From Actinernus sp. WN-2022 (taxonomy: Eukaryota; Cnidaria; Anthozoa; Actiniaria; Actinernidae), in NCBI GenBank assembly GCA_030867875.1, contig JAOWCC010000064.1, positions 33,006,802 through 33,070,801 of the forward strand: a DNA stretch of 64,000 bases, in the 5' to 3' direction. A program made the position numbers and the translations under genes. The first letter of the stretch is position 1. Each line of letters starts with the position of its first letter. Positions 1 to 61,281 of the stretch are shown here, piece after piece. Below the pieces are notes generated by a model that made no database searches, was not told where the DNA came from, and worked only from the letters and a program-made list of their open reading frames with translations.

Positions 1-62
1 CGAGAGTTGCTCTACCCAGCTTGGCATGAGCCCACCATCGAAACCAGAGATCCCTGTGAAAG
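1..62 (+). CDS. GPC3/5-like: GPC3/5-like exon 1 (3' part)
   Basis: Reading frame starts at base 2: ESCSTQLGMSPPSKPEIPVK, followed by one base of a split glycine codon. The first conserved cysteine (ESCS) and the PEIPV stretch before the exon end match the glypican exon 1 layout. Donor GTTAGT at 63; phase 1, as in the minus-strand paralogue. The signal peptide and start codon are outside the window. The intron to exon 2 is only 117 bp. Confidence 0.8.
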
Positions 63-3000
63 GTTAGTGTCCACACGTTTTCTAGCGGGTATGATAGGCT
101 TCATAAATAAGTTAGCGTGCTTGCAAAATGTCTTGTGTTTAGCCGCTTTAGTTTTGAATCACGATCTTCTACTATGTAGGGTTGGCTCCGCGTGTATGCT
201 TGAGTTTGAAGACGTGTTGTACCAGTTTGATGGAGACTACCTTGAGGCGAAAATCTGTCAGCGAAATGAAAACGAAAGTTGCGAGAAAACTGGATGGCAG
301 CAAGGAATCCACGAGATCTCTAAGAGAAGACATCAAAGGTATATATTCTTTATTGAATAATAATTGCAAAAACTCTACATGTAGCTCGAGTGCCGTGTTG
401 ATATAAAAGTAAACGAACTTTTCCACCAGAGTATGTTTTAACATTAGACAGTAATGGCGTTTCACGTTGATGGATTGCTCTATCATGATATTTTAGAACT
501 GCGCTTTGAAACATTTCAATGTGTTAATTTCGTAGAGGGGCTAGATTAGACTAAACATTCCCGCGCATAAAGTTTGTGCGCTAGATCAGTGTTCAAATAT
601 TCAAAAGCTAAAGCCCTTAGGGAAATGGAATGGTTTGTCAATTCCCGCGGTATGACTTCACCCTTATTCATGGCCTGTATATGAAACATTAGGATGACCA
701 CAATCAAGGGCATTGGGCCAAGTGAGATTTTAACGGAGTGTAGTGTTACCAGGCTGTTGTTTTCTATAAAGGACATATCATCTAAATTGGTACGCATCAT
801 GCTTGAATTGCATGAATAGGCGTAAGGTATTGAATTCGCTCTAAGGCCAATATTCTTAAGTACCGAAACTAATATCTAGATAGATGCCCTTATAGTCTGT
901 TTGGTGTATTTACTGTCAAAGACGATACACGAGTCTCTCGCGGAGGGAAAAGGTGTATCATCTATAGGACTCCTTAAAATTTATATTATGCAGGGAGCAG
1001 CGAATAATTTCCGGCATGGGTTCGTGATAATTGTTTTTACCTCGTTCTCAAATGAAAAACTGTTTTGGCATTGTTATAACCGCCTGAAACCTAGAGCGAG
1101 ATGCAAGCCTGGGAGATTTCAAGCGAACGCTACAACCCTGCGAGAAAAGGTGTTAATAATTTAGGACACCGAGGAGCAGAAAGTACGGAGGTTTGATCAA
1201 GACTGGCCGGCGAAACTTATCCCACATGTCATGTCAGGATTGCACCCTCAGGGTAATCTAGCTTCTTTTCTGAGATTAATAACCTCTGACTAAACAAACC
1301 TCTTCTTTCAAGAGATCGTTCGAACCCTATGTAAATACCACTGGATCACAACCCCGTCATATTGTCTAGAAAAATAACACCACTGAATGAATTCGAATTT
1401 CCTTGCTTCTTAAATTGGAAGACTGCTCTTCAGTCGAGGTTTGGCTTTGATGCTTGCCGCTTCAGCTGGGTCAAGATTGTTAGCCAAGATATTTGAGCTC
1501 GTGCGTTTGGTCAATTTTTTTTCGCGGCGTCAACATCGCTTAAACCACTTGAAAAGCATTTAAACCACTTTAATCAGCAAAGTGCTGAGGGTCTGTCTAG
1601 GGTTTGGGAGAACTCTTTTTCCGGGGTTTTCCCTTTCCCGTAGGACATTTCATTTTGTCTGGTCGCAGTCAGCGCGAGGGTTGTTTATTTTGCGCTCTTC
1701 GAGAAAATCAAAATTTCTAATCTTCAACTCATTAAAGTCAGCAGTCTTGTGTGGTGAGTGATTGTTTCTTTCGGGCAGCATATATTAAACTCAATGATTT
1801 TTTAACGGCTTCTTTTTCACTTTGTTTCAGCAAAATAAAACTGTACGTATTTAATAGCGAAAAAAGAGTGTTCATTTTGAAATTAATTTGTGAAAACGGC
1901 CTGATACAAGTCTATATAGTCTCGAGATAAAAACAATAAGAAACGGTGCTAGACGGAAGAATTGCCGCTAGACCTAAGAATTGCCTTCCTGGAGATAATC
2001 GTGTTTACACTACACTTCGGGTTTTACAGTTTGAGTGGTACGGCAATTATATATAAGAGAGATAAGAATTAGTGGTTGTTGCTCTAAATGTTGATAGAAT
2101 TAGTACTGTGGGGTTCAAGAAATCCCCAACATGACTTCCTTTCATCAACAGCTTTCTTTTTTTCTTTAAACTTAATATACCGAGAAAATTAACTACTGGC
2201 AGTCTTCAAACATTTTTTAGATGAAATAGTTATCAACTAGCGAAATCCCAAATAAAAAAGAACTTAAAATAATATATAAATGCATGCTCATTTTAGAAAT
2301 ATGCTGGGCCTAACTTATCGAGGGGTTTCACTCGTTAAAATTTCATCGTATATATTTGGTTGTTAATTTTAAAACTCTTTAGGAATCTAATTAAGGGAAT
2401 TGAAAAACAGACTTCATGGTGAAATATTTTTGTACTGTTGTTTGGCTTCTTCTGCAAGTCAATGTGCTTTATGTATAGATCTGAAGGTTGCAGAATTCGG
2501 TATAAATTTGAACGAGTGAGTTTTCAAAGAGTATCAAAATTGCACGAGCCCACTTGAGCTCTTTTAAAACTCACAAGATCGAATTTATCCCGAATTTCAT
2601 GAGAATACCATATGATTTCATTCTTCGGACGATCTTCGGAAATATTGGAACAATTAAAGCACTGTTTATGAAGTAATGCTACAGCATCTGAAATGGATGT
2701 TTAGTACTGTCAAATGAATTTACATGGTTAGATGTGTTTTTGCCGTAACCACAGCCCAGCATAGTCAGTTTTAAGCATTCGGAAATGCTTGGAAACACAT
2801 CAGAAATTTTCAGAAAATCGTCGGGAAAAATCCCTTTACCAAAACATGACTGTGAACAATTTTGTGTACTTCGATTTCATTCTGGAGCTTTTGTTTTCGA
2901 TTTTTAGATTGTCAAATTCCTGATTTGGAGTGCAATTTCAACCAAACAGTGCAATTTGGGATAAATTGCACAGCTCTCACCCAATCAGAATCGAGAAATT

Positions 3001-6000: not shown

Positions 6001-9000
6001 CTACAACATGCATGATATTTTGAGGGTGTCTTGAACAGTCCTATCATGATTCCTCATATAGCGGGGAGTGCTTTTCTGACTATGTATCAAGCCTGTAAAG
6101 GAAGATAAAGGCTGTCAATTTAAACAAGAAGAAGAATTGTAAGGTTTTATTGTTGTTTTATATATTTAGTTATGCAGTTGAAAGTTGATATGTATATCAC
6201 TATATGTATGATCGAGGCACGACAATTTCTTCTCACAAACTGACAAAGCTTGTGTATATAACAACTTATAAATTATCTTATAAATATATCGGTGAAGTTA
6301 TGAATAAAGTACACTTCTAATAAATTTAGCGTTGAATGTCTCAGAACCGTCTTCAAGTCTTGCAACCCCAAACTTTCCGCTTTCCGCTATCTTGGTTTTG
6401 TCAGAGATACGGGCAATTTGCCACAGAATTAGTCTTCGCTAGTAACCGACCCAGTCTTCCACTCGTTTATCAGCTGCAACTTCCGGTCAAAGACGTGATT
6501 TTAAAAGCGTTTTGCAACGTTCAGATTAGGAATAAGTGAAAAAAAAACTATTGAAAGTGATATTAGATGTAATAAACTATCATATACCCGAAAAAGAGGA
6601 ATTTTAAAGGACCAAAATTTAGCCAGTGCAGATACCTTAAGTAATCAAGTAATAATGCTAAAGAGGATATTTATTTAATGATGCATTAATCTATCTTAGA
6701 TAGACATACATTGTAACTGTACATACTAAATAAACTTCTTGTAGTTGTAGATATAAATGGTTATTTACTGTTTATTAGATTAAAACTGTAGGGTTTTTCC
6801 CATTTAATTAGTCTCTGTAGATGGTGGTCACACACAATGCATTAGGCACACAGATTTCCCTTAGTAAAGTATGCATGCAATATGGCCACCATCAATATAA
6901 ACAATATGGGGGAACTAAATACAAAATTCAGCATACCTCTGAACTCCTCACCAAAGTACAAGATGTTCCCTCCAATTCTGTTAGAAGATGATATATAATA
7001 CATAGCATCCAAGATAAACATTGCAAGTTTTATTCCCGTGGTATTCAGGGGTTTCGTTAATTTTTAGAGTGGACACCCAAAGCTCATCCACACAGGAATT
7101 TTTTTTTCAAAAAAATCAATGTAATTTCAATCAGTGGGAATTGGCAGATTTACATCCTCAGGCAATGACCATTCATGGGAACTGTTCTGTTTTTCATCAT
7201 TCCAGCAGTGAAATTTTGAAAATAATTGTATTGGAACTAATTCACCATGTGCCAGCTACGAAAGTTCACCCTTGATTTAAATTACCATAACTCGAATTGA
7301 GAGTGAGATCTCACTCTTTTTAAATGTTGGATAAAGTTAGGTTTGGAAACATTTAATCTTCTTAAATCGTAAATCAAGGTCCACTTCTTCTTCACATACA
7401 CCGTAGATGCCATATTGTAAACTGTGAAATTGAAGCTATTTATAACTGTAATTTTTGGCCAATTTTGCCTACCAATATTCATTTGTCATTTTTTCAACTA
7501 GTCTATAGTTTCATTGCTTAGACATAGTCTAGACTTCTTGCTGCTTCTGGCCAATAGTGAGCATCTATTTCAAATGATTGGCAGGTGATTTTGGTCATAA
7601 ATAATAACACCCTATCTAGCTCCCTCTCGTGTCCCCATTTACGGCTATACAATATTAAGAAGAAGAATTCATGAACACTCATTTGAAACAGAGTGTAATT
7701 AAATGTGGTTAGAGAGAGCATATTAAAATTAGCACCTATATGCAAAGTATTTATCAGATATTTTAGATATCAACCAATAATAAACCCATAACTGTAATAT
7801 TTAGTCAATTAAGCTTTGCCAACATTCATTTGTCATATTTTCAACTTCGTTTTGATTTCCCTCCTAAAGTTTAATGCAGTTTTAAAGGGGCAGGGCAGAC
7901 GTGCAAGAATGTTGTTTTTCCAATATTGGCACTGACTATTTTCAACATATAGGCATTATAATTACCACCACTTTCATTGCTGCACAATGGCACAAAATCA
8001 AAGTCTTGTTGTGAAGTTTGCATTAGACTTCAATGAGTCGTACAAAGTGAGAGAGATAATTAATCACAGCTAGGGAATTTAAAGCCAGGACGACAATAAT
8101 GGCTGTGATGGTGGGATGTGAAAAAGTAGTGTGTGTTTATTTCTTTTATCACTCGATTTTTATTGCTTTTCTTACTGGTCTTGCTGCATCATGTAGCAAT
8201 GAAAATGGTGATAAATGAATGCAGGACTCTGAGGTGCTAGTATTATGTACCTACATTGACTAAGAATTCCTTTTCTTTGTCAGGGTACTTTCAAAGTATT
8301 GTCCAGGATGGTTATCAACAAAGTCTACTATTTGTTAGCAATTCCCATGTCAATCTTTCAAGGGCTGGTGGTCCATTGCTGGCGACGTTCTTTACAGAAG
8401 TGGAGAACTACATCGATGACAAAAATGTTAATCTAACAGATGCAGTGATGCAGTTTTTCCGTGATTCCTTCCCACTTCTCTATCAGTATGCATCGGGTAG
8501 AGCTGAAAAGCTTTCCAACCATTATGAAAAGTGCTTGAAAGACAAGATAAATGACATCCAGCCTTTTGGAACGCATCCCAACAGAATTGCAAGAAATCTG
8601 ATTAAAGTTCTGAAGCCAATACAGGTTTTTATTGACAGCTTGGCATTTGCAATGACAGTCATTGATGGATCCAAGCAACTTAACTTTGCAACAGGTTGTG
8701 AACCAGTTTTGCTGAAAATGACATATTGTTCCCTTTGTAAAGGTGGCAAGGCAGGTGTCAAGCCATGTCATGGATACTGCATGGATGTTCTTAAAAATTG
8801 TTTGGCTTCTAGTATACAGTTACAGACACACTGGGGGGTATATTTTGCATCGTTGGATTCACTAGCCAGTAGTTTATCCATTGCACCAAGTGCGAAGACT
8901 GTCATATTGTCTGTATACAAAGACTTGTCCACAGCAGTTGTACAGGTCCTGTCTCAAGTCAACACTGTTAAAATGAAGGTTTGTCACATCTCTAATATCT

Positions 9001-12000
9001 GAAACTGAAAAAAAAACTATTACAACCCCATCACATACCACTTATGACCTACTTGAAACCTACAACGACCTGTCAATCAAAAAAAAAATTACTTATGTGT
9101 GCAGAAAAGGTAACAAGTTTAATATTATTATCTCCACTGAATTAGGACTTTGGTGCCAAGTTTTGTTTATTATAATTTTGGTATACAGCTATTTCAAAAA
9201 AGACAAGCAACATTCCCAGAATGAAATGGGTTGTGGTTATAACTGTCCAGCTGTGTGAAATGGATAAACTACAGTGTACTTCGAAAATCAATTTGCAGGA
9301 GACTATTAATATCCATCTTAAAGTTTTTTGATCCCAAAAAAACGAATTCACCAGACTTTCAGCTACAACCACAAATATCCATTTCAGTCTGGGAATGTCA
9401 CTTGCTGCTTGTCCAGGACAACTTTTTTTGAAATAGCTGTATATATAGAGTATTATAATATAGATATGATAGTACGCACGCTCTGATTGGCTAAAAAGCC
9501 ATATTTTATCAGAGTATATAACATGGTTTGCCATGTTTTATTGTTTTCAGCTAGCAGTTTCCTTTCGTCGCGCGTGTAAATCTATATTATAAAACAGCTA
9601 AAGAAGCCTTAAATCCATGTTTTATACTATCATAAAACACTCAGGTCATTTGAGAACACTCGAGAAATGTTGACATGACTTCGGCTTGTGCTTTGACATT
9701 TCTCTCATGTTATCAAATGCCCATTGTGTTTTGTGATAGTATAAAACATGGCTAAGGCTTCTTTATTTGTTAAATACATGTACATGTCCATGGGCACACA
9801 GAGATATGGAATTTATCTTCGAGTGTTCAACTTGATATCCCACGAGTGAGCACAGCGAACGAGCCGAACGAATGAGATATTGAGTTGAACACTTGAAGAT
9901 AAAATATTACATATTTCCAAGCAACCAAGTATTATTTAATTTATTTTATAAGCAATACTTGGACCTCAGTGGGCCCAGTTGTTCGAAGCAAGGGTAAGCG
10001 CATGACATGGAAATCGGTGATTGGCTGAGAAGTGATTTTGTAATATTTCTTACAATTACTCCTGAAATTAAAACAAATTATTTTAAGAAAAACGTGTAAA
10101 GAATATTCATGGCTTTAGTAGTGATTCCTCCATTTCCCAAAAATCTAGTTTCCTATGTTAGAAACATATACAGGGAACCCCAAACACTAAAAGTAAAAAG
10201 CATATTCTGGGTACCTTTAGCTGTTCATAATCTAGCCTACTTACAATAATTATATGCTTTGTGTGTCACTGGTAAATTAAACATAATTATTATTTTGCAA
10301 AACCTTAATTTTTATTGTGCATGACAAGTGAAGCATATATCGAAAGCGGCTTCTCTCCATTTGAAAGAGTATATAGTACTTATTAGCTATCAGAGTTTTT
10401 CATTTATTTTCTGTATTAAATGATTTTTTTTCTAGGCAGTTGGATTTTGCGGTCGGCCACAATATGTTCGTGGGGGATCTCTCCCTGGGCCATCTTCGGT
10501 TACAAAGCCAAACTCATCATCCCAACACCTTAAAACAACTATTGCTGCCAAAATGGACAGTGCTAAGTCCAAAATGACTTTCCTCAAGACCTTGTATGGT
10601 GGACTTCCACATGCAATCTGTGTATCTGAAGGTTTTGCTGCTCAAAAAAGTGATAAAACAACAGTACAAAGTTGTTGGAATGGCACAGCAAAAGCAAGGT
10701 AAGAATTGTTTTTTCTCCTGAGGAATTAAGAGTGAGGCCAACACAAAAGTTTTACATGTGTAGTTTTAATACAAGTCTAGCCATTGTTTCCTTGAAACAA
10801 TGGCTGAACTTGTAAAATAACGGTACACATGTAAAAGTCTTGGAGTCACTGCTAGCTCAGACGTGTATGACGCAGCAGCCATTTTGACTTCAAGCAATAG
10901 CTTTAATAACACTTTCAGCCTCTATGAAGTACCCTGTGAGCAGAACCGTATTTTCTTTGGTTTTCTAATCTCCTTCTACTGAGAGTGAGAGCAAAGAAAA
11001 TTGTCTTTGTTCTCAGTGGAAGGAGATTAGAAACCAAAGAAAATATGGTTCTGCTCGCAGGGTACTAGAGCAGATTTCGTATGAGTGGGACAAACTACAG
11101 CACTGAATACAGCACGGTTACCATACGGCATGCCGTGATGTTGAAATGGTTTCCCATTGTTTTTGGCCTGCTGATCCAATCAAATTACAGAAATATGGCA
11201 CAGCACAGTTACGGCAAGACTATGGACATGCCATAGTTTGTCCCACCCATACAAAATCTGCTCTATGAATTGGTAGACACCGTGTAGCCATAAGCTGTTA
11301 GTATAGCTAATAGCATGATCTGTAGTGATATTTGGCCGATACAGCATAAATACCTCTCATGATATTTCAAAATTGTTTGTAATATCACTCGCCGCTTATA
11401 TTACGAATAATTTTGAAATATCATGAGTGGTATTTATGCCAAATATCATGTACAAATCATGCTATTTGTTTATAATATGACCTAAGAAATTTACGGAAAA
11501 AGACAATCAGATGTCTCAGGTGCACCGAGTTTGACAGTTACCTCGTTGAGGTTGAGCTCAACTCAAAATTTGAAACTCCTGCGCTTGGCACATAAGCTGA
11601 TAATTTAACTGGAGCTGAAAGAAAATAGCTATAACCTGTGAATTTTTTTTTTTCTGGTACACTGGCAGTGACACCAGCAAAAAGCGAAGTTTGATTTCAT
11701 TTTCAGGCAGTTCATCGAGCACAATCAAGCAATAAAACAGTTGTCACTTTGCTGTTTTATTAAAGAGAGTAACTAGCTGTTGTACATCTCCAAGAATAAA
11801 CTTTACAATCGAAAACTGCACGAAACTATCGCAGCTGGAAATCAAATTCCAGTTCTTAATTAAAAGAGTTTTGCTTCAGGCAACTTGAACAAGATTCAAG
11901 GAACGGGTCACGTGGGACCGAGTTTCCAAGGATTTCTTGTCAATGGATTAAAAACAAAACAATTAAAACAAAATTTAAAAGTAAACTTGGCTTACTTTGA

Positions 12001-15000: not shown

Positions 15001-18000
15001 AGTGAAGAATCGTCTGCAATGGACGCAGATTGTGAAACGAACTTTTATAATTCCACGTCGAATAAATAAAAGGCGAGAAAGAGAGAAGAGGAGAGAGGAG
15101 ATAGAAAAGAAGATCGTCCGTAATTGGACAATCCACTCATTACCAGGTGCAACCGTGAGTGCTGGATGTAACGGTACTTTTCATTGGCTTACCAATGGCC
15201 CTGGAATTAATATTAATAGGAAGAAGAATTTATTTACAATATTGATACATAATTATATGGAAACGTTGACAATATATTTATATATATATGCAAAGAATAA
15301 AGATGGTATGAATATATTAACTCGATCTTAGTTATCTTATGCGTACTAAGAATCGTTATTATTATTATAATAATAATTATTATTATTATTAGACCGCCAT
15401 GGTAGTGGTTCCCTATCAATCGCTTAGTGGTGATGACGTAACAATGAGGTCTCGGTCACGTGATTTTAAGTACATGCCCATATCTCCCTCATTTCTAATG
15501 CCAGACAGTTCAAACTGGGACAGGCATGGTATTGGGTGCCCACAAATCACTTAGTGGTGATGACGTAACGATAACGTTATCGGTCACGTGATTTTAAGTA
15601 CATGCCTATATCTCCCTCATTTCTAATGCCAGCCGGCTCAAACTTTTACAGACATGGTACGGGGTCCCCACGATTCACTTAGTGATGATGACGTAACGAT
15701 AACGTCATCGGTCACGTGATTTTTAGTATATGCCAAAATAGCTCACTGACCATCCACGAGTTGCCCTTAGGGGCCCTATGTTTATTTCTCCCAGGACTTG
15801 ATAATCGACTTGATAATCTTCCTTTTCGCTGCTACACATTGCTGACCGTTTTGTTGATTCTCTAGTTACACTGGACCAATTAAGACGCTCATGCCTTCAT
15901 TTCAAACTGTGCCCGGAGACCAAAGGAAGATTGAAACATTGGTCAGTGAGATGAAGGGAGCCATTGAAGTCATGAAGAAATACACATATGAGGATGAGGG
16001 TGAAGGAAGTGCCGGCAGTGGAGGTGAATAATCATTGTAACAAATTGCTGGTTTGCAATCAATACCAAGAGATTCAGATAACGTGGCGGCCGTGACCAAC
16101 AGATCAGGAATAAGAATAACTTACTCATGGTAGTGTTTTTGTTTTATCCAGACTGTGTTTCTAACTATCGAAATGACATTTCAGAGACCTTAGATTTTCA
16201 AACTTTCGCTTGCAGCGTTTGTCGCGTGCCTACACTCTCACCCTCCCTCCCCTTTTCTCGTTTGATTATTATGAATCGTCTATAAACCGGAATTCGGCAT
16301 ATTGTTTACGAAAAACCCGGACCCGAAAATTGAAATTAGGTTCAAACCGGGACCCAGTACCGCCGCACCTATACTGACAAGAGTGACCCCCCCCCAGGTA
16401 ATGACGTTACGTGAAAACGAGGAATGGGCTGATCATATTTTAATTCACGGTGGCATCAATTTGTCTTTTATTTATGTTCAGAATCTAACGTGGTAACAGG
16501 AAGTGGCTGCTCTAATGATGATGATGAGGAATGTGTCAGTGGTAGCGGAAAGAACGAAAACACTGTTGATATAAAAGGTAGGGCTGGACTTATTGCTCCG
16601 GGTACTCTCAGTAAACAGATCTTTGTTCGCATTCTCTGCAAGAAATAATACGTTGGACTTAAAGATTTGAGAGCGTTGCTTAATTTTTTTTAGAAAAGAA
16701 CTCTGTACCAAAGTCGTACGAAACCCGTGGGGAGGGGGTGTACTCCCAGGAATTTTGGTGGGGGTGTGCTGCCGGGTCTCAATTTCAGACCAAAATATAA
16801 GATTTTCCATACCCGCTTTAACTCGAGGATGCGCACAAGTACAGAAACGAGTTATAGGGATGGTTAGGGATATCGTGTTAGCAGAATGGAATGCTTGGAA
16901 TGCAGATTGATAAGATAATAGTAATCGATATTTGATTTAATTAATAATTGAAGATCGATGTGGAACATTAATTGCTGTTGGAATTGACGTTGCTCAAGTC
17001 TTCATCGCCGGTTCCCCTCTTGTTACTAACTGTAAAGTGAACGCAAACGTAGCGAGAACTAAGTGTTATCCATATGGGAGATGTACGTGTGTGCTCATTC
17101 AGTCGCGCTTATCCGAGTCCCTCCGATAGTGACGTAAAACCTTTGTAAGTTTTCATGGCTAACTCCTCGCTTAATATGAATGGCAAGTGGCTCGGACTTT
17201 GACAGACATGATATTGAGGATCCAGTAGTATCCCGACATGCATTGCGATATAAGATACAATATCATTCGATGTGTGACGACCCATTGAGACTAGTCTGAC
17301 GTTTGACCTAGAGAATCATTCGCTGGCTTCACCTCAACTTTTTAGTAAACTGAAATAATGCTAATTAGTACCCATCAGCGACTCGCCACGGTGAGAATTT
17401 TGCAATTCAAGTTCATGATAGAGCGGATTTCAATTGAGTGTCGGAAGTGTTTTGGTTTTGCGTTTACTAAGCTCTCCTATTGGCTGAGAAAGTAAACCAA
17501 CCAATCAGAATCCAAAGTAAAACCAAACGCAAATTGCTTTTGGTTTTGCTTTGGTTTGTCATTGGCTCGCAGGGAAGCCATTTATGAGTTACTTGTGATT
17601 ACTCGCTCCTATGATTGGCTGGCTGCGGGTAATTTGCGTTTGGTTTTACTACACTCAACTGAAAACCGCTCTAACAGCTTAGAAAGGGTATATAAGTTTA
17701 AATATCTTGGAGTCCTTATGGACCAGAGCCTCTCAAGGAAGGAGTTAGACTTTCTCCAAGTCCGTTCGCGACTTCGTCGCTTCGCCGAAAACTAAGTAGT
17801 TTTCAAAGTAGTCAAATTGTGCCAAGTCTAGGAAGGAGCAACAAATCACATCGCGAAAAAGATATCGTTACACTCTATAATGCCATGATCCTGCCGCTGT
17901 TCGACTACTGCGCATGTGTATGGGACAGTCGTCGTATAGGCTGTAAAGCCTATTTAGACTGGCTTAACCGGCGCGCTGCCTGTATAATCGAGGGCCGACC

Positions 18001-19229
18001 AGTTGAGTCAACTGAACTTCAATCAGTTTTTTAGCTGGTCCAGTCTACAGGACAGGGACGTCGGGACTATCTTATATGTGTCCTTGTTTATAAGTCTTTG
18101 AATGACATGACGCCGGGATATCAGAATTCAGGCATTCATACCAGTTTCACAACTATAATACTACGCACCGCGACCTACTCCGCTTGCCACTCGTTAGAAC
18201 ATCAAAGTAGCTGATATTTTGATAAGTGGCGCGCGTGCGTTTAACGCCCTACCTTATAGCATTATAGACAAATACAGGAAGTTCAAGTCTAACATCAAAC
18301 GCCATTTTTAAGCGTCAATTTTATCCGTAGTACTTATATTGTATACTGCATGTTTTGTGATTAAGTGTAATATACTTTAGTTATTTTAAGTGTGTCCATT
18401 TTGTACCTATTAGTTAATGTAGGGCTCTATTTAAACAAGCTAAGCATGGCTAAACTGGATTCCCCTGTAATAAACAAGTAATTAATGATTTTATAAGAAA
18501 TAGATACAGAAGTACTGGTTCCTTGACCACCATGTTCTCACGCGTATTAATGAGATGTTAAGTTTACTTCATTGAGACAAACGAATTAGTTCTGTTCTAT
18601 CCACTTCCCTAGACCACAGCACACCGCGGCAAAACGTCACGCGCATGCGCTTTTGATGAGCCCAGCGCGCGCGTCCCTCCAGTTTCCCGCCAAAATTGAA
18701 AGAAAACAAAGGCAACCATTTAGGCAGTATGAGAAATGTTTCGCCAAAAACAACAAAACTACTTTAAAGCTGAACCTAAGACTTTAAGAGGTTTAAGTTT
18801 TCGAAATTTGCAATTCACTGTGAGTTTACTAAGTTATAAAATTATTTACTAACCAAAGTTTAAGCCCTCGAAAACCTGTATTTCTACTCCAGAGCCTTCG
18901 TTCTTTCGGCCAGCGGAGCACAACGTTTTGCTGCGGTGCGAGACTCATTCTAACCTCATTTTAAAGCAGGGAAATGAGTAGAGTGTCGTTGGTTTGCTGG
19001 AAGACTTCACGCACTTTTTAATCTTTTCTTTACAGGTGACGACAATGATGTGTATTTTTCTGAAACTACACCTCATCCTACAGGTTTGTCAGTAATAGAA
19101 GAAGATGGTGGTGGGCCTGTGTTGAGCGTAAAAGGTTCCAAGGGGGAAAACGGAGCATCGTCAAGAGATCATGGTCATACGCTTCTTGCCATCGTTACAA
19201 TCTCTCTGGTTCTTCTCCTAACAAAGTAG
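1..19229 (+). CDS. GPC3/5-like: Glypican, GPC3/GPC5 (Dally)-type, 5'-truncated by window edge
   Basis: Glypican core protein, a GPI-anchored heparan sulfate proteoglycan of the outer cell surface that modulates Wnt, Hedgehog and BMP signalling (family knowledge). Exons by splice sites and phase: 1-62 (partial), 180-338, 8284-8978, 10436-10698, 15866-16023, 16482-16577, 19036-19229. They join to about 541 codons without an internal stop; the signal peptide lies left of the window. Fourteen core cysteines are present (SC, VC, TCC, EKC, GCE, YCSLC, KPCHGYC, KNC, FCG, IC, SCWNG). A Ser-Gly/acidic region follows for heparan sulfate attachment, then a hydrophobic GPI signal. A pair of extra cysteines bracketing DDDEE inside the Ser-Gly region matches the GPC3/5 subfamily. 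No RXXR convertase site was seen. The subfamily call is by eye; the family call is firm. Confidence 0.94.
180..338 (+). CDS. GPC3/5-like: GPC3/5-like exon 2
   Basis: 159 bp, phase 1 in and phase 1 out, acceptor TATGTAG, donor GTATAT. Encodes LAPRVCLSLKTCCTSLMETT and a basic, alpha-helical-looking remainder up to REDIK. The VC...TCC..ME pattern is the glypican N-terminal cysteine signature. The minus-strand paralogue has a 162-bp exon at the same place with the same phases. Confidence 0.88.
339..4187. other. Intron 2 of GPC3/5-like gene, left part; no further gene seen
   Basis: AT-rich intronic sequence. Open frames here are short, without motifs or consistent splice phase. A stretch near 3808-3858 (TCTCCATTATGAGTAATATK, then GAGTTATAGGGAATGATATA) recurs at 28983-29030 in the intergenic region, so it belongs to a dispersed repeat of unknown type. 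Confidence 0.6.
4188..4451 (-). repeat. tRNA-derived SINE
   Basis: Read on the minus strand, the head (4451-4376) has a pol III A-box-like TTAGCTCACTGGTTAAGC and a B-box-like GGTTCAAACCC at tRNA-like spacing. A roughly 180-bp body follows, and a tail of CTTTA repeats ends near 4188. No acceptor-stem pairing typical of a working tRNA was seen, so this is a retroposon. It lies in intron 2 of the GPC3/5-like gene, antisense to it. Confidence 0.72.
5027..6636. mobile_element. TTAA-flanked TIR element (piggyBac-like, non-autonomous)
   Basis: Both ends are TTAA followed by matching termini: TTAA-GGTATCTGCACCGGC on the left (TTAA at 5023-5026) and its complement GCCAGTGCAGATACC-TTAA on the right (TTAA at 6637-6640). 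A 4-bp TTAA target duplication is characteristic of piggyBac. The 1.6-kb interior holds no recognisable transposase. A third end of the same family, TTAAGGTATATGCACCGG, lies at about 31657. Confidence 0.65.
6641..8283. other. Intron 2 of GPC3/5-like gene, right part; nothing recognised
   Basis: AT-rich. Two near-identical short blocks (CCAATATTCATTTGTCAT around 7470 and CCAACATTCATTTGTCAT around 7820) show old repeat content. No gene, RNA or complete element was recognised. Confidence 0.5.
8284..8978 (+). CDS. GPC3/5-like: GPC3/5-like exon 3 (main cysteine-rich lobe)
   Basis: 695 bp, phase 1 to 0, acceptor TTTGTCAG, donor GTTTGT. It starts GYFQSIVQDGY and ends NTVKMK. It encodes the helical body of the core protein, with KC, GCE, YCSLC, KPCHGYC and KNC cysteines, and two N-glycosylation sequons (NLS, NLT). 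The LLKMTYCSLC and ECL/KCL segments align by eye with the same exon of the minus-strand gene at 38341-39029. The open frame runs on to 9002, but the donor at 8979 fits the downstream phase. Confidence 0.95.
9183..9442. mobile_element. MITE with long TIRs, TA-flanked
   Basis: Ends TA-TACAGCTATTTCAAAAAA and its complement before TATA. Inverted similarity continues inward for about 60 bp (AAGCAACATTCCCAGA against TCTGGGAATGTCACTT). Flanking TA suggests a Tc1/mariner-type origin. No coding capacity. Lies in intron 3 of the GPC3/5-like gene. Confidence 0.65.
9600..9765. mobile_element. Hairpin MITE
   Basis: Near-perfect inverted arms of about 45 bp at each end (AAAGAAGCCTTAAATCCATG against CATGGCTAAGGCTTCTTT), with a second inverted zone inside (ACACTCGAGAAATGT / ACATTTCTCTCATG). 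No coding capacity. Confidence 0.6.
10436..10698 (+). CDS. GPC3/5-like: GPC3/5-like exon 4
   Basis: 263 bp, phase 0 to 2, acceptor TTTTCTAG, donor GTAAGA. It begins AVGFCGRPQYVRGG and ends QSCWNGTAKA. It carries core cysteines 12-14, including the CWNG motif typical of glypicans (C, W, N-glycan sequon NGT). The minus-strand paralogue covers this portion with two exons (36450-36604 and 34778-34909), so one intron was gained or lost between the two. Confidence 0.92.
10930..11064. mobile_element. Hairpin MITE (TACCCTG family)
   Basis: Arms of about 55 bp fold back on each other: TACCCTGTGAGCAGAACCGT at the left and its complement (GGTTCTGCTCGCAGGGTA) at the right, with ATCTCCTTCTACTGAG / CTCAGTGGAAGGAGAT inside. 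135 bp in total. It directly abuts the next MITE. Confidence 0.7.
11068..11263. mobile_element. TA-flanked MITE (GAGCAG family)
   Basis: TIRs GAGCAGATTTCGTATGAGTG and CCCATACAAAATCTGCTC with TA on both sides (11066-11067, 11264-11265). The inner TIR part GGGACAAACTA also pairs. The first bases (GAGC) and TA target match the family at 17421 and 34391, so they may share a transposase source. Confidence 0.7.
11311..11467. mobile_element. Hairpin MITE
   Basis: Inverted arms: AATAGCATGATCTGTA with GATATTTGGC and CATAAATACC on the left, pairing with GGTATTTATGCCAAATATC and TACAAATCATGCTATT on the right. Located at the left edge of the larger element at 11470. Confidence 0.55.
11470..12610. mobile_element. 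1.1-kb TIR element, non-coding
   Basis: Termini TTATAATATGACCTAAGAAA and, at the right, the complement TTTCTTAGGTCATGTTATAA, which differ at one base over about 22 bp. The interior is unique-looking with no transposase. The internal open frame at 12046-12237 has no recognised domain. The target duplication could not be fixed because the ends are AT-rich. Confidence 0.55.
12611..15356. other. Intron 4 of GPC3/5-like gene, middle; no gene recognised
   Basis: Contains the doublet TTCCCGTATCGTACGTCA at about 14664 and 14808 and a purine-rich patch (GAGAAAGAGAGAAGAGGAGA near 15076). Otherwise no recognisable gene or complete element. Confidence 0.45.
15357..15392. repeat. (ATT)n / (AAT)n microsatellite
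   Basis: Short run of TTATTATTATAATAATAATT and more ATT units. It forms a small AT palindrome. Confidence 0.75.
15424..15725. repeat. 127-bp tandem repeat with TGACGTAA and TCACGTGA motifs
   Basis: About 2.4 copies with a 127-128-bp period; TTAGTGGTGATGACGTAAC occurs at 15424 and 15551, and TTAGTGATGATGACGTAAC at 15679. Each unit has a CRE/ATF-like TGACGTAA and an E-box CACGTG 30 bp downstream. It sits just upstream of exon 5 in intron 4. Confidence 0.75.
15866..16023 (+). CDS. GPC3/5-like: GPC3/5-like exon 5 (start of Ser-Gly region)
   Basis: 158 bp, phase 2 to 1, acceptor TTCTCTAG, donor GTGAAT. It starts SYTGPIKTLMPSF, has a helical segment (KIETLVSEMKGAIEVMKK), and ends with DEGEGSAGSG. 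The last residues form the first glycosaminoglycan-attachment cluster, Ser-Gly next to acidic residues. Confidence 0.88.
16482..16577 (+). CDS. GPC3/5-like: GPC3/5-like exon 6 (cysteine-bracketed Ser-Gly cluster)
   Basis: 96 bp, phase 1 to 1, acceptor TATGTTCAG, donor GTAGGG. Encodes ESNVVTGSGCSNDDDEECVS followed by GSGK. Three Ser-Gly pairs and two cysteines flank a run of Asp/Glu. This arrangement matches the corresponding part of GPC3/GPC5 and is absent from the minus-strand gene. Heparan sulfate attachment here is inferred from the motif. Confidence 0.85.
17421..17671. mobile_element. TA-flanked MITE (GAGCGG family), copy 1
   Basis: TIRs GAGCGGATTTCAATTGAGTG and CACTCAACTGAAAACCGCTC, flanked by TA at 17419-17420 and 17672-17673. 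The interior (CTCCTATTGGCTGAGAAAGT and onward) is nearly identical to the copy at 34391-34617. Confidence 0.8.
17681..18310 (+). pseudogene. Non-LTR retrotransposon reverse transcriptase, C-terminal fragment
   Basis: Broken reading frames give YKFKYLGVLMDQSLS (the YLGv.iD motif after the RT palm), then LYNAMILPLFDYCACVWDSR (lY.a.i.P.ldYc..vW), then NRRAACIIEGRP. These are the thumb and C-terminal motifs of LINE-type reverse transcriptases. There is a stop and a frameshift between the first two blocks and more beyond. A dead insertion in intron 6 of the GPC3/5-like gene, same strand. Confidence 0.75.
18623..18937. mobile_element. MITE, ACCGCGGCAAAACGT family, copy 1 (315 bp)
   Basis: TIRs ACCGCGGCAAAACGTCAC and AACGTTTTGCTGCGGT. 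The interior ends with TGTATTTCTACTCCAGAGCC, which carries a single AAATAC unit on the complementary strand. An inverted copy is at 37147-38004 and a partial one at 34111. Confidence 0.75.
19036..19229 (+). CDS. GPC3/5-like: GPC3/5-like exon 7 (C-terminus and GPI signal)
   Basis: 194 bp, phase 1 in, acceptor TTTCTTTACAG, stop TAG at 19227-19229. A Gly/Ser/acidic spacer leads to NGASSRD (possible GPI attachment site), and then to the hydrophobic tail LLAIVTISLVLLL ending TK. The short hydrophobic end with no cytoplasmic tail is a GPI-addition signal. No canonical AATAAA was seen close downstream; GATAAA occurs near 19724. Confidence 0.88.
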
Positions 19230-20010: not shown

Positions 20011-20177
20011 ATTCACTCTTTTCACCTTGTGGCCATCTTGGATTCAAAGCGAGGCAATCCTTTGTTTTTGCCAGGTGAGCCTCATTTTGACTATCCCTTA
20101 CTACGAGGCTGACCTGGCAAAAACAAAGGATTGCCTCGCTTTGAATCCAAGATGGCCACCAGGTGAAAAGAGTGAAT
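20011..20177. mobile_element. Long-arm hairpin MITE
   Basis: Arms of about 75 bp are almost perfectly complementary: ATTCACTCTTTTCACCTTGT at the left, and its complement ending AGGTGAAAAGAGTGAAT at the right, with CAATCCTTTGTTTTTGCC inside. Loop about 20 bp. Confidence 0.72.
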
Positions 20178-20201
20178 TGGCAACAGAATTGTACTGGATT
20201 G

Positions 20202-60400: not shown

Positions 60401-61281
60401 CTCTACTAGTAAGTACTTGCACGATTTGTCTGACTAAACGACTACGCAGCGATAAAGTCTTCACATAGTCGGAGCTTTGTTATGCCGAATCATGTACATA
60501 TTTGTGTTTACTTTTGCGTTTTGCTTAATTTCCTGTACTCCCAAGCGGATCGCCTAAAATCACGAACTCGACCCCACCATTTCCATCCCAAACCCCAACC
60601 ACCAGGCACAGAACGCAAGTCTTGCAAGCTCTGAAATTGACCAGTGGAAACGAACACGTGCGGCTCTCGACGATCGACGTTCATTCACGAGCAACAATGA
60701 GGGTGAAATGAACGAGAACAGACCTCAAGCCAATTCAAATCTAAGCTAAACTCGGTTTCCTAAACTCATATAATTAAACCTCAAAAGTACAACCTACCGT
60801 CAAAGGTTTTCCCATTATCGGCAAAAGTAATCTTCAAGTTGTTCGTCCTAGCTTTCAAAGCGATTTCAAAATGAGTTCTTGACAGTCCTACGAAGCTCAC
60901 CTCCATTTGCTTAGTACAGCATCCGCTCGAAGAAGCAGGGCAAACTTTCAAGTCCGAGCCTAATTGAGGGAAAGTCTGTTAGCATTGTGCCACGATTTTA
61001 AGCATCAAATAAGCATGTTACGCCGAGACATCCTATTAGCTCGGTATTATAAAACAAGCAAGTCGGCAAAAAAAATCCCGCAAATACAACACAAAAACCA
61101 ACACAGCGTGAAGTAGCCCTCGCTTACCCAAAATTGCCTGTACAGGTACGTCGTTTTCCGGCAGCCCCTTCGATATGTACGAAGCTTTCACCGATGAACA
61201 ACTAAAGTTCGCTCCGTCTGCAAGGCTCAGACAGAAAACCAAACAGCTCAACCACATAATAAGACGATGAGACGGGGCCAT
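33048..61281 (-). CDS. GPC4/6-like: Glypican, GPC1/2/4/6 (Dally-like)-type, complete
   Basis: Complete glypican of 564 residues. Exons in order of transcription: 61281-61128, 60959-60798, 39029-38341, 36604-36450, 34909-34778, 33450-33048 (1695 bp including stop). All junctions are GT-AG and in phase. Signal peptide at residues 1-25; fourteen core cysteines; furin-type RMKR at about residues 363-366; a Ser-Gly run (SGEESGSGSGSG) at about 476-487; GPI signal at the end. The segment FSIENVIVPIGVKISFAIM and the AAGTNLRRL stretch resemble GPC4/6. It acts at the cell surface as a heparan sulfate co-receptor for Wnt, FGF, BMP and Hedgehog ligands (family knowledge). It faces the GPC3/5-like gene tail to tail, 13.8 kb apart. 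Confidence 0.96.
33751..33900. mobile_element. Hairpin MITE (ATTGTGGCGTCGAAA), between exons 5 and 6
   Basis: Arms ATTGTGGCGTCGAAAGATGC and the complement GCATATTTCGACGCCACAAT; CCTGATATTAGTCC / GGACGATATATCAGG inside. 150 bp. Parts of its interior (ATAACAACAATAACCTA) recur at about 33480, so an earlier partial copy may exist. Confidence 0.68.
34111..34290. mobile_element. MITE, ACCGCGGCAAAACGT family, truncated copy
   Basis: Begins ACCGCGGCAAAACGTCACGC like the copy at 18623 and keeps the TTTTGACGAGCCCAGCGCGC stretch, but the far end is missing. In intron 5 of the GPC4/6-like gene. Confidence 0.6.
34391..34617. mobile_element. TA-flanked MITE (GAGCGG family), copy 2
   Basis: Same termini and interior as 17421-17671, flanked by TA (34389-34390, 34618-34619). 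About 24 bp shorter because the inner part of the left TIR is lost. Confidence 0.8.
34778..34909 (-). CDS. GPC4/6-like: GPC4/6-like exon 5
   Basis: 132 bp, phase 2 to 2, acceptor CTACTTCCAG, donor GTAAAA. Encodes LTKEFTTQISGSKGFWTRLP, then TSICTAQ and NKCWNGTAIG. The FW..LP..IC...CWNG pattern carries the last two core cysteines and is strongly conserved in glypicans. Confidence 0.93.
35055..35333. repeat. Dispersed repeat, uninterrupted copy
   Basis: Reverse-complement copy of 20962-21426 without the hAT-like MITE. Ends GTACTGGGTGGCAA / TTCCTGGAAAAGGCCTA. Provides the empty site for that insertion. Confidence 0.7.
35594..36172. mobile_element. Long-TIR element with 52-bp tandem repeat in its left arm
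   Basis: AATAACCACTGTCATCTCAA starts a 52-bp unit present about 2.5 times (35594, 35646, 35698). The right end (about 36070-36172) is the inverted counterpart (CTCTTTGAGATGACATG, TTAGAGACCCCAGTTTGCCG). Inner arms also pair (AGTATAGGATGAAATTCCG / GGGATTTCATCCTACACT). No coding content. Confidence 0.65.
36200..36333. mobile_element. GGGTTGCA MITE, copy 1, with CRE and YY1-like motifs
   Basis: Ends GGGTTGCACGTGACGTCATG and ATTGGTTGCAACCC. Carries TGACGTCA (perfect CRE) and paired GCCGCCATGTTGG / CCAACATGGCCGCC sequences that resemble YY1 sites. Other copies: 41264-41397 and 44611-45377. Confidence 0.72.
36450..36604 (-). CDS. GPC4/6-like: GPC4/6-like exon 4 (convertase site)
   Basis: 155 bp, phase 0 to 2, acceptor TTCTGTATAG, donor GTCTGT. 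Encodes IFDGCGTPKGKSKRSTDD, then FFIEGSERMKRNSD, and ends AAGTNLR. GCG carries core cysteine 12. RMKR fits the R-X-(K/R)-R furin consensus, and KSKR just before it is a second basic site. Glypicans are commonly cut by convertases in this loop, leaving disulfide-linked halves. Confidence 0.92.
36631..37146. other. Intron 3 of GPC4/6-like gene, nothing recognised
   Basis: Contains the inverted pair AATAATGATTATCATTA / TGATAATCATTATT (about 36728-36783), possibly the core of a small MITE. No gene. Confidence 0.4.
37147..38004. mobile_element. MITE, ACCGCGGCAAAACGT family, inverted copy swollen by a microsatellite
   Basis: TIRs ACCGCGGCAAAACGTCGTGC and GACGTTTTGCCGCGGT. It is the reverse orientation of 18623-18937. 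Without the 533-bp (AAATAC)n tract the element is about 325 bp, nearly the size of copy 1. Confidence 0.75.
37199..37731. repeat. Perfect (CAAATA)n microsatellite, about 89 units
   Basis: 533 bp of uninterrupted CAAATA hexamers. It creates open frames on both strands (alternating Gln-Ile, alternating Tyr-Leu) that are artefacts, not genes. In intron 3 of the GPC4/6-like gene. The complete absence of interruptions suggests recent expansion or collapse/extension in assembly. Confidence 0.98.
38341..39029 (-). CDS. GPC4/6-like: GPC4/6-like exon 3 (main cysteine-rich lobe)
   Basis: 689 bp, phase 1 to 0, acceptor TTTTTCCCTGTGCAG, donor GTAAGC. It starts AFFRELIKNSEKDLNKMF and ends TNEVVSKK. Contains DC, EC, MYCSWC, LPCSALC and KNC cysteines. 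The FIKTYG...YQQ and LNVGLSVV segments read like vertebrate GPC4/6. It lies 21.8 kb downstream of exon 2. Confidence 0.96.
39274..39469. mobile_element. MITE with a nested hairpin
   Basis: Outer arms AAACTTGCAAAATTCAAATT and TGAATTTTGCAAGTTT; inside, CTTCGCAGCCGTTCTTGG and CCAAGAACGGCTGCGAAG form a second hairpin (about 39373-39438). Confidence 0.6.
39759..39850 (+). repeat. tRNA-like SINE head (weak)
   Basis: GGTCTAGCAGTTAGG (A-box-like) and GGGTTCGAAAACTAC (B-box-like) followed by a T run. Degenerate, no cloverleaf confirmed. A similar weak B-box, GAGTTCGAGTCC, lies on the minus strand at about 40203-40220. Confidence 0.35.
40340..41263. other. Intron 2 of GPC4/6-like gene, nothing recognised
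   Basis: Short recurring pieces such as AAGTGCGCC.CGAGACG (here about 41093 and also about 35420) point to old repeats. No gene motif. Confidence 0.4.
41264..41397. mobile_element. GGGTTGCA MITE, copy 2
   Basis: Ends GATGGGTTGCACATGACGTC and TGAAACCCATC, same length (134 bp) and interior as 36200-36333, including TGACGTCA and the GCCGCCATG / CATGGCCGCC pair. Confidence 0.72.
42243..42300. repeat. Partial TAGCCTGCTA hAT-like end
   Basis: TAGCCTGCTATAGCAGACGT and the following TTTTTCACCCTGATAAATTC match the left end of 30792-31139. No right end found. Confidence 0.55.
42715..42737. repeat. (ACAG)n microsatellite
   Basis: Short ACAGACAGACAGACAG run at the presumed 3' end of the LINE fragment. 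Confidence 0.7.
42780..43528 (-). pseudogene. Non-LTR retrotransposon ORF2 C-terminus with zinc-knuckle-like end
   Basis: A 188-codon open frame ends with ISLTKLRISNHNLMIEKGRH, then PPEERWCPFC...DEKHFLTNC. The C-x2-C...H-x4-C pattern after LRIS.H.L.IE.GR is the familiar tail of cnidarian and fish LINE proteins. After a frameshift the sequence goes on as ADKQFRLLINPPRKLMKTIS. An AATAAA (minus strand, about 42750) and CTGT repeats lie at its 3' end. Inside intron 2 of the GPC4/6-like gene, same strand. Confidence 0.75.
44331..44526. mobile_element. Long-arm hairpin MITE
   Basis: Arms of about 90 bp: CCCACTTCCGCAATATGCTT, AAGGTTTCAATACGAGGCTC and GTGCTAAATTAAATTTATT pair with the inverted right half. 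The central loop is under 20 bp. Confidence 0.72.
44611..45377. mobile_element. GGGTTGCA MITE, copy 3, expanded with nested hairpins
   Basis: Ends GGGTTGCAACCCAACCC and GACGTCACATGCAACCC; keeps the CATCCAACATGGCGGCCATG end. Inside are a small palindrome GAGACGCCAATA / TATTGGCGTCTC (about 44731-44759) and a larger hairpin at 45170-45321 with arms TTTTGAGACGCCGATACCGA. Confidence 0.65.
45170..45321. mobile_element. Nested hairpin MITE (TTTTGAGACGCC)
   Basis: GATTTTGAGACGCCGATACC and its complement at the far end, with AATTATATTGCCGGC / GCCGGCAATATAATT next. Sits in copy 3 of the GGGTTGCA family. Confidence 0.68.
45640..45805 (-). repeat. Degenerate tRNA-derived SINE
   Basis: On the minus strand TAGCTCGTATGCACTAATCC (A-box region) and GTCGTGAGTTTAAACATT (degenerate B box) sit at tRNA-like spacing. 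The following body continues toward 45640. Confidence 0.4.
45806..47110. other. Intron 2 of GPC4/6-like gene, nothing recognised
   Basis: AT-rich without an element boundary or protein motif that could be supported. Confidence 0.4.
47111..47268. mobile_element. TA-flanked MITE (GACCCATTCGAAAAATGG)
   Basis: TIRs GACCCATTCGAAAAATGGCG and CGCCATTTTTCGAATGGGTT, flanked by TA (47109-47110, 47269-47270). The centre has GGACTGACTAGCCTCGT twice in tandem. Confidence 0.78.
47271..48974. other. Intron 2 of GPC4/6-like gene, AT-rich, nothing recognised
   Basis: Low-complexity AT stretches, including (ATA)n/(TA)n at 47848-47880. No gene motif. Confidence 0.45.
48975..49461. mobile_element. TIR element filled with TCTAAATATCA repeats
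   Basis: Ends TAGACCTAGATACAAATATC and GATATTTGTATCTAGGCCTA. Towards both ends the motif YCTAAATATCA recurs at least eight times at irregular spacing. No coding potential. The repeated motif could be a transposase-binding array. Confidence 0.65.
50230..50305. repeat. Short tandem duplication
   Basis: TATATCAAATGTATATTGGA and TATATCGAATGTATACTGGA, each followed by ACAAGAGC; period about 36 bp. Confidence 0.65.
50899..51121 (-). other. Candidate signal-peptide exon (weak)
   Basis: A minus-strand frame opens at 51121 and includes LLPKALLALLIFLAVGSADF, a strongly hydrophobic stretch, then VLVANECEK followed by GTAAGTAATT, a perfect splice-donor match at about 50898. No second exon with matching phase and no family could be recognised, so this may be chance. 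If real it would be a gene nested in the GPC4/6-like intron 2. Confidence 0.2.
51660..51780. repeat. CATGGCTCGCAT short repeats
   Basis: ATGGCTCGCATG occurs about four times in 70 bp, preceded by two TATGCGAGT copies. A small degenerate minisatellite. Confidence 0.6.
51943..53020. other. Intron 2 of GPC4/6-like gene, nothing recognised
   Basis: No open frame with a motif or element end seen. Confidence 0.4.
53023..53790. repeat. G-run and CCCTGACCC-rich repeat region
   Basis: A G run at 53023-53037, then AAACCCTGACCCTGTTTGAC and GATTGCCCC units; at 53700-53790 CCCTGACC recurs five times with AAATCAGG. The two zones look like the degenerate ends of one element. Confidence 0.45.
54195..54282. 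repeat. CTGACTCGCACC minisatellite
   Basis: Six or more imperfect units of CTGACTCGCACC. Confidence 0.75.
54300..55464. other. Intron 2 of GPC4/6-like gene, nothing recognised
   Basis: AT-rich. No supported feature until the target duplication of the next element. Confidence 0.4.
55588..55735. repeat. Subterminal 20-bp tandem array, left arm
   Basis: Unit TTTTACTTTCGACATTGGAG, about 7 copies with 20- and 21-bp variants. The mirrored array at 58294-58494 has about 10 copies. Produces spurious repetitive open frames. Confidence 0.9.
55926..56746 (+). pseudogene. IS3EU-like transposase first exon, left arm (interrupted)
   Basis: Begins MAANANDYIVHAYDTVNQTI and continues as DEIISLLGEACTN up to the insertion at 56129. 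It resumes at 56507 and reads KPLSLLKFSISGMDD, then FLLEGGFKVPTIAQLFRVST and RTVERRMK. The last block is a helix-turn-helix of the type placed before integrase-like cores. It ends at a donor-like GTGGGT near 56735. No catalytic core is present in the element. Confidence 0.68.
56129..56503. mobile_element. Harbinger-like MITE, 375 bp, TAA duplication, empty site known
   Basis: TIRs TGCACCTATCAATGTCAACC and the inverted complement ending TGATAGGTGCA, flanked by TAA at 56126-56128 and 56504-56506. The matching position in the right arm (about 57890) reads without the insert and with one TAA. The interior has GGGCATTTGA / CAAATTCCCC repeats like the element at 24402-26072. Confidence 0.85.
56840..57046. 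mobile_element. MITE inside the left arm (GGTAATYGGCTAAC)
   Basis: Ends GGTAATTGGCTAACGCTG and AGAGTTAGCCGATTACC, with long inner pairing (CAATTCAGATCATGTGATG / CATTACATGATCTGAATTG). An equivalent copy lies in the right arm, 57361-57570. Confidence 0.75.
57057..57347. mobile_element. Central loop element (GAATACCCCGCAACTTGG)
   Basis: TAGAATACCCCGCAACTTGG and its complement at the right bound the only non-duplicated part of the palindrome. It may be an insertion at the symmetry axis or the remaining spacer. Confidence 0.55.
57361..57570. mobile_element. MITE inside the right arm (GGTAATYGGCTAAC)
   Basis: Inverted counterpart of 56840-57046 at the matching position of the right arm, so it was present before the palindrome formed. 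Confidence 0.72.
57753..58094 (-). pseudogene. IS3EU-like transposase first exon, right arm (frameshifted)
   Basis: Same start (MAANANDYIVHAYDTVNQ) and same sequence as the left arm through ACTNQPVTKTRPK and KFSISGVDDRDK. An 8-bp loss relative to the left arm then shifts the frame before the helix-turn-helix. It shows what the left copy looked like before its 375-bp insertion. Confidence 0.68.
58294..58494. repeat. Subterminal 20-bp tandem array, right arm
   Basis: About 10 copies of CTCCAATGTCGAAAGTAAAA, with 21-bp variants (GAAAAGTAAAA). It is the inverted partner of the array at 55588. Confidence 0.9.
58623..60797. other. Intron 2 of GPC4/6-like gene near exon 2, nothing recognised
   Basis: No protein motif or complete element supported. 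Short open frames have no recognisable family. Confidence 0.45.
60798..60959 (-). CDS. GPC4/6-like: GPC4/6-like exon 2
   Basis: 162 bp, phase 1 to 1, acceptor CTCAATTAG, donor GTAGGT. Encodes GSDLKVCPASSSGCCTKQME and ends ITFADNGKTFD. The DLKVCP...CCT..ME pattern is diagnostic for glypicans. Too short to show as a standalone open frame; found by matching phase and motif with exon 1. Confidence 0.93.
61128..61281 (-). CDS. GPC4/6-like: GPC4/6-like exon 1 (signal peptide)
   Basis: Starts MAPSHRLIMWLSCLVFCLSL, a clear signal peptide, with likely cleavage after LADGA, then NFSCSS with the first core cysteine and a sequon. It ends NDVPVQAILG, with donor GTAAGC and phase 1. The start at 61281 has a good context (CAAAATGG). 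An in-frame ATG at 61320 would add 13 residues before the hydrophobic stretch and is less likely. Confidence 0.93.

What the first reader, a model, noticed from the sequence alone, without database searches (positions are those of the whole stretch)
1..61281. One glypican of each subfamily sits tail to tail in a cnidarian-like genome
The plus-strand gene has GPC3/5-type features (two cysteines around an acidic run inside the Ser-Gly region). The minus-strand gene has GPC4/6-type features (FSIENV..PI.VKIS, furin site, AAGTNL). In vertebrates GPC3 lies beside GPC4 and GPC5 beside GPC6. If the subfamily calls hold, the pair predates the cnidarian-bilaterian split and has stayed linked, with one member inverted here.
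Basis: partly seen in the sequence, partly recalled or inferred. Interest (0 to 1): 0.85.

Follow-up and report, generated by a model that had tools for sequence, protein, structure and literature searches.

The report
Linked glypican pair in sea anemone
This stretch of what looks like sea-anemone DNA carries one gene from each of the two branches of the glypican family (cell-surface proteins that help shape growth-signal gradients), lying end to end; the two branches look older than the split between anemones and other animals, and a neighbouring arrangement of this kind is already described in print.

Summary
In detail: two glypican genes, tail to tail. The plus-strand gene has exons 180-19229 (exon 1 outside the window); the minus-strand gene is complete (61281-33048, 564 aa, 14 core cysteines); 13.8 kb lie between. 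The subfamily calls hold. In the tree the plus gene joins GPC3/5 and the minus gene joins GPC1/2/4/6 and Dlp (100/99). A cnidarian-only duplication is rejected (AU p 0.00012; 0.008 on tool-printed GPC3 letters alone), and long-branch attraction simulated on the duplication tree did not reach the observed signal (0 of 60), though without GPC3/5 rows the placement is unsupported. In Actinostola the best relatives have consecutive locus tags and equal contig length. Linkage in other cnidarians and the inversion were not tested. A 2013 paper already calls the GPC3-GPC4 cluster well conserved in Eumetazoa, so this is a further instance of a known arrangement.

The parts
180..338 (+). plus glypican, exon 2 (C..CC motif; exon 1 lies left of the window)
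   Evidence: splice sites; aligned with Actinostola P0105; intron phases as in the minus gene
8284..8978 (+). plus glypican, exon 3 (core)
   Evidence: Pfam PF01153 E 1.9e-49 on the enclosing ORF; best solved-structure match GPC3, 103 bits against 64 for GPC1
10436..10698 (+). plus glypican, exon 4 (CGRP ... CWNG)
   Evidence: tblastn with GPC4 query E 6e-4; splice sites; aligned with P0105
15866..16023 (+). plus glypican, exon 5 (helix and first Ser-Gly sites), least certain
   Evidence: splice phase and content only
16482..16577 (+). plus glypican, exon 6: SGCSNDDDEECVSGSG, Ser-Gly region with cysteines around an acidic run
   Evidence: weak tblastn to GPC3 E 0.12; splice sites; motif
19036..19229 (+). 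plus glypican, last exon with GPI-type hydrophobic tail and stop, least certain
   Evidence: pyrimidine-rich acceptor, right phase, hydrophobic C-terminus; no relative seen for this exon
33048..33450 (-). minus glypican, exon 6: Ser-Gly run, GPI-type tail, stop
   Evidence: Pfam PF01153 E 8.7e-9; aligned with Nematostella P0001
34778..34909 (-). minus glypican, exon 5 (CWNG)
36450..36604 (-). minus glypican, exon 4 (CGTP, KSKR and RMKR convertase-type sites, AAGTNL)
38341..39029 (-). minus glypican, exon 3 (core, FSIENVIVPIGVKIS)
   Evidence: Pfam PF01153 E 1.3e-77 on the enclosing ORF; best solved-structure match Dally-like, 189.5 bits
60798..60959 (-). minus glypican, exon 2 (C..CC motif)
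   Evidence: tblastn E 6e-6
61128..61281 (-). minus glypican, exon 1 with start codon and hydrophobic leader (signal peptide by my reading)
   Evidence: aligned with Nematostella P0001; no Pfam glypican match on its own
19230..33047 (.). 13,818-base tail-to-tail spacer
   Evidence: holds ORF 27935-28483, which reads like a LINE remnant to me but has no Pfam hit

Best explanation
A sea-anemone-like genome, nearest to Nematostella among the named species seen, holds the two ancestral glypican genes as neighbours. The plus-strand gene is the GPC3/5-type member (the subfamily of dally), the minus-strand gene the GPC1/2/4/6-type member (the subfamily of Dlp). They arose by a DNA-based duplication of an intron-bearing glypican gene before cnidarians and bilaterians parted, and their linkage has been kept; here they point at each other. 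Both proteins are inferred to work as ordinary glypicans: secreted, disulphide-bonded core, Ser-Gly sites for heparan sulphate near the membrane, GPI anchor, regulating the spread and reception of morphogens such as Wnt and BMP. Shown: gene models, cysteines, Ser-Gly sites, hydrophobic tails, tree, shared introns, tag-level linkage in Actinostola. Inferred: heparan sulphate attachment, anchoring, signalling role, age and single origin of the linkage.
For: Tree of 28 rows: {plus-type 5, GPC3/5 3} against {minus-type 6, GPC1/2/4/6 and Dlp 14}, 100/99. AU test rejects plus-type + minus-type as one clade, p 0.00012, and plus-type + the four anemone minus-type rows, p 0.00004; with GPC3 cut to tool-printed letters and GPC5 left out, 99/99 and p 0.008. 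On 60 data sets simulated on the duplication tree, 0 reach the observed likelihood difference of 37.4; maximum 21.2. Four introns at matching places and equal phase in both genes. All 14 core cysteines in minus, 13 of 13 in the visible part of plus. Layout SG-C(acidic)C-SG in plus, GPC3 and GPC5 (both with recalled C-termini), in 1 of 104 minus-type relatives. Actinostola QZH41_009584 is the best relative of plus, QZH41_009585 the second-best of minus, both with contig length 585,966. A Nematostella plus-type fragment exists, P0108, 66% identical over 38%.
Against: Plus-type and GPC3/5 rows are long branches (warning), and attraction favours their join in 55 of 60 simulated sets, though more weakly than observed. 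Without GPC3/5 rows the plus-type rows fall next to the minus-type rows at 55/49, and plus-type with the four anemone minus-type rows is not rejected, p 0.118. Without plus-type rows the place of GPC3/5 is open, p 0.44 for GPC3/5 with the minus-type rows. At 21 subfamily-diagnostic columns plus has the GPC3/5 letter at 5, the GPC1/2/4/6 letter at 2, neither at 13, a gap at 1. By plain BLAST human GPC3 scores minus (169) above plus (116), and Actinostola P0105 scores a GPC6 (127) above GPC5 (115) and GPC3 (107); plus itself scores GPC5 highest outside its own type (158, then GPC4 139). Protein searches with plus and its alignment returned no bilaterian GPC3/5 protein, so dally and invertebrate GPC3/5 are missing. 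The motif could be checked in 1 of 5 plus-type rows only, as the others stop before it.
Confidence: 0.85

Rival explanations
1. The plus gene is a fast-evolving, cnidarian-specific tandem duplicate of the minus gene that resembles GPC3/5 only through long-branch attraction.
For: Long branches; with GPC3/5 left out, plus-type and minus-type rows sit together at 55/49; attraction is real in simulation, 55 of 60; shared introns would also fit a young duplication.
Against: AU p 0.00012 and 0.008; simulated attraction reaches at most 21.2 against an observed 37.4; Ser-Gly/cysteine layout as in GPC3/5, absent from all six minus-type rows of the cnidarian group.
Confidence: 0.08
2. The two subfamilies are ancient, but the neighbourhood in anemones is a secondary encounter and not the same linkage as in vertebrates.
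For: Tail to tail here, head to tail in vertebrates (recalled); only one further cnidarian could be checked; flanking genes were not compared.
Against: Two members of so small a family becoming neighbours by chance is unlikely a priori (inference), and a 2013 paper states that the cluster is well conserved in Eumetazoa (PMC3828384).
Confidence: 0.06
3. The linkage is an assembly join of two separate loci.
For: A 533-base CAAATA array and a 3.1 kb palindrome lie in introns of the minus gene and could mislead an assembler.
Against: Consecutive locus tags and equal contig length in Actinostola; both repeats lie inside the minus gene, between exons of one protein that matches Nematostella P0001 over 99%, and not in the spacer.
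Confidence: 0.01

Closest known systems
Vertebrate GPC3-GPC4 and GPC5-GPC6 gene clusters
   Same: One GPC3/5-type and one GPC1/2/4/6-type glypican side by side; the GPC3-GPC4 cluster is said to be well conserved in Eumetazoa (PMC3828384, passages seen)
   Different: Tail to tail here; head to tail in vertebrates as I recall (from no call). The GPC5-GPC6 linkage in mammals is likewise recalled
Actinostola sp. cb2023 QZH41_009584 / QZH41_009585
   Different: Strands and distance not seen; the deposited 009584 protein has 390 aa and stops after exon 4
Nematostella minus-type gene (P0001, deposited as glypican-6) and plus-type fragment (P0108)
   Same: Minus 61% identical over 99%; plus 66% over 38%; a role in oral-aboral patterning is reported for Nematostella Glypican 1/2/4/6, as cited in PMC12164971 (passages seen)
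   Different: The two records have different contig lengths, evidently from different assemblies, so linkage could not be read

Membership tests
Glypican (PF01153) | Profile match above the curated cut-off | tested here: met
   169.3 (plus exon 3) and 262.4 bits (minus exon 3) against a cut-off of 26.4
Glypican (PF01153) | 14 conserved core cysteines | tested here: met
   14 of 14 in minus; 13 of 13 in the visible part of plus, the first lying in the missing exon
Glypican (PF01153) | Ser-Gly sites near the C-terminus and a GPI-type tail | tested here: met
   By sequence only: minus SG at 483-493, plus SG at 424-447; hydrophobic C-termini. No GPI predictor was run; actual glycosylation and anchoring are not testable here
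GPC3/5 subfamily (plus gene) | Groups with GPC3/5 and not with GPC1/2/4/6 | tested here: met
   100/99, AU p 0.00012 against the alternative, 99/99 with tool-printed letters; long-branch caveats
GPC3/5 subfamily (plus gene) | Cysteine pair around an acidic run, flanked by Ser-Gly on both sides | tested here: inconclusive
   Present in plus, GPC3 and GPC5 (C-terminal letters recalled) but also in P0079, 1 of 104 minus-type proteins, so possibly ancestral to both subfamilies
GPC3/5 subfamily (plus gene) | GPC3/5 letters at subfamily-diagnostic columns | tested here: inconclusive
   5 GPC3/5, 2 GPC1/2/4/6, 13 neither, 1 gap, of 21
GPC1/2/4/6 subfamily (minus gene) | Groups with GPC1/2/4/6 and Dlp | tested here: met
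   Same 100/99 split; 13 of 21 diagnostic columns against 2 of GPC3/5 type and 6 neither; best solved structure Dlp 189.5 bits, GPC3 102
Conserved GPC3-GPC4 type cluster | Members of the two subfamilies adjacent in other cnidarians | tested here: inconclusive
   1 of 1 species that could be checked, Actinostola, and there only by locus tags and contig length
Conserved GPC3-GPC4 type cluster | Same relative orientation as in vertebrates | not tested
   Tail to tail here; vertebrate orientation recalled only

The most novel reading that the evidence does not exclude
The two glypican genes have been held next to each other since before the cnidarian-bilaterian split because shared regulatory DNA forces it, even though one gene has been turned round in the anemone lineage, so that the block is a testable ancient regulatory unit for Wnt/BMP patterning.
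Probability: 0.15. Interest if true: 0.6.

Novelty: new member of a known kind. Interest (0 to 1): 0.35.

Why it matters
It gives gene models for both glypican types at one anemone-like locus, and evidence measured against long-branch attraction that the GPC3/5 type is present in anemones. A pair kept since before the cnidarian-bilaterian split (inference) would be a good place to ask whether regulation holds neighbouring genes together. The functional reading of each gene is ordinary.

Tried and rejected
The genome search on the window's own genome was tried nine times and never answered, so copy number and the missing exon 1 could not be sought. One viral-contig scan found no relative of the plus type (57 pattern matches, none confirmed). 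No Rfam match in the window. Plain BLAST ranks were rejected as a subfamily test, because human GPC3 scores the slow minus gene above the fast plus gene. The furin site and the cysteine-acidic-cysteine motif were rejected as sufficient subfamily markers. Two papers that bear most on the matter, Filmus 2008 and Bause 2016, are not held: nothing of them was read. Paper searches with glypican and Nematostella, synteny, Cnidaria, Eumetazoa, primary body axis, microsynteny, tandem/ancestral, and sea anemone were seen as listings with starts of abstracts, some cut short (20 of 24, 8 of 9, 15 of 22 listed); apart from the sentence in PMC3828384 no title or abstract start named the linkage of cnidarian glypicans, but full texts were not read and most subscription papers are not in that library. 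Passages were seen of PMC3828384, PMC2772021, PMC12164971 and PMC4169000 (the last only reference-list entries).

Full report
WHAT IS THERE. The plus-strand gene runs from 180 to 19229 in six exons within the window; the expected first exon, with the leader and the first core cysteine, lies to the left. The minus-strand gene runs from 61281 to 33048 in six exons and gives 564 residues from ATG to stop. Introns are 458 to 7,945 bases in plus and 168 to 21,768 in minus, and the tails are 13,818 bases apart. The open frames around exon 3 of each gene match Pfam Glypican at E 1.9e-49 and 1.3e-77. Minus has all 14 core cysteines and plus the 13 that can be seen, with a further pair in its Ser-Gly region. 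Exons 2-4 of plus are matched by Actinostola P0105; the later exons of plus have no relative in hand.

SUBFAMILY. Among solved structures plus scores GPC3 highest (103 bits; GPC1 64, Dlp 63) and minus scores Dlp highest (189.5; GPC1 144, GPC3 102). The tree has 28 rows: 2 window proteins, 21 of the 108 database proteins returned, and 5 typed or copied rows (human GPC3, mouse GPC3 piece, human GPC5, human GPC1 piece, fly Dlp piece). The split between {plus-type, GPC3/5} and {minus-type, GPC1/2/4/6, Dlp} has 100/99 support; within the second side the join of the bilaterian rows is weak, 64/74. Holding plus-type and minus-type rows together costs 30.0 log-likelihood units, AU p 0.00012; holding minus-type rows with GPC3/5 costs 30.1, p 0.00011. 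With GPC3 cut to the 222 letters that a tool printed and GPC5 left out, on 27 rows and 232 columns, the split is 99/99 and the duplication test gives p 0.008.

LONG BRANCHES. The tree program warned that long branches meet. Three checks. Without GPC3/5 the plus-type rows sit with the minus-type rows at 55/49, that is unsupported, and plus-type with the four anemone minus-type rows is not rejected, p 0.118. Without plus-type rows the place of GPC3/5 relative to the cnidarian minus-type rows is open, p 0.44. And 60 data sets were simulated under LG+C20+G4 on the best duplication tree found, then the duplication topology and the topology found free on the real data were each scored under LG+G4: the false topology wins in 55 of 60, by 5.1 on average and 21.2 at most, against 37.4 in the real data. 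So attraction exists but, under these models, is not enough.

OTHER CHARACTERS. Plus and minus share four introns: three at the same aligned column (phases 1, 1, 2) and one within two columns (phase 0); minus has one intron and plus two that the other lacks. This speaks for a DNA-based duplication but not for its date. The layout SG-C(acidic)C-SG is in plus, GPC3 and GPC5 and in 1 of 104 minus-type relatives, P0079, SGDCYDDEDCNDEGSG; it may be older than the two subfamilies, and 4 of the 5 plus-type rows stop before this region. A looser Ser-Gly and cysteine-pair pattern is in the last 200 residues of 59 of 104. R-x-K/R-R after residue 250 is in 42 of 104, so a furin site does not tell the subfamilies apart.

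LINKAGE ELSEWHERE. In Actinostola sp. cb2023 the best relative of plus is QZH41_009584 and the second-best relative of minus overall is QZH41_009585; both rows give 585,966 as contig length. Nematostella has a plus-type fragment (P0108, contig 245,837) and the minus-type gene (P0001, contig 17,327,027), evidently from different assemblies, so linkage cannot be read. 1 of 1 checkable species is linked. Vertebrate linkage is taken from print and its orientation from recall.

WHAT IS KNOWN. PMC3828384 (passages seen) sorts glypicans into GPC1/2/4/6 and GPC3/5, says that dally and Dlp each belong to a different one, and says that the gene cluster containing GPC3 and GPC4 is well conserved in Eumetazoa, citing Filmus 2008; it also finds zebrafish gpc5 genes out of synteny with human. 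PMC12164971 (passages seen) cites a study of Nematostella Glypican 1/2/4/6 in oral-aboral patterning. PMC2772021 (passages seen) reports two sea-urchin glypicans, 5 and 6. So the two-subfamily scheme and the cluster are known; this locus is a clear further case. The host is taken to be a sea anemone because the nearest named proteins are from Nematostella, Actinostola and Actinia; the species is unknown.

VERDICT. It is a new instance of a known arrangement.

Noticed in passing
55470-58617: Palindrome of about 3.1 kb (main arm blocks 97-100% complementary; about 375 bases of the left arm, 56129-56503, have no partner) in the 21.8 kb intron of the minus gene, with 20-base tandem arrays in both arms and an ORF with a sub-threshold HTH_23 match (E 0.0016); could be a fold-back mobile element or a recent inverted duplication.
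   Followed up: partly
37199-37731: 533 bases of CAAATA repeats (88.8 copies, 100% matches) in an intron of the minus gene.
   Followed up: no
17702-18034, 27935-28483, 42962-43555: ORFs that read like LINE retrotransposon remnants (my reading); Pfam gave only a sub-threshold zf-RVT match for 42962-43555 and nothing for the other two.
   Followed up: partly
P0079 residues 494-509 (a database protein, not in the window): A minus-type glypican of unnamed source carries a GPC3/5-like cysteine-acidic-cysteine motif between Ser-Gly sites, which hints that the motif predates the subfamilies.
   Followed up: partly
180-19229 against 33048-61281: The plus-type gene seems to evolve faster than its neighbour: 49% against 57% identity to the two Actinostola proteins, and a much longer branch in the tree.
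   Followed up: no
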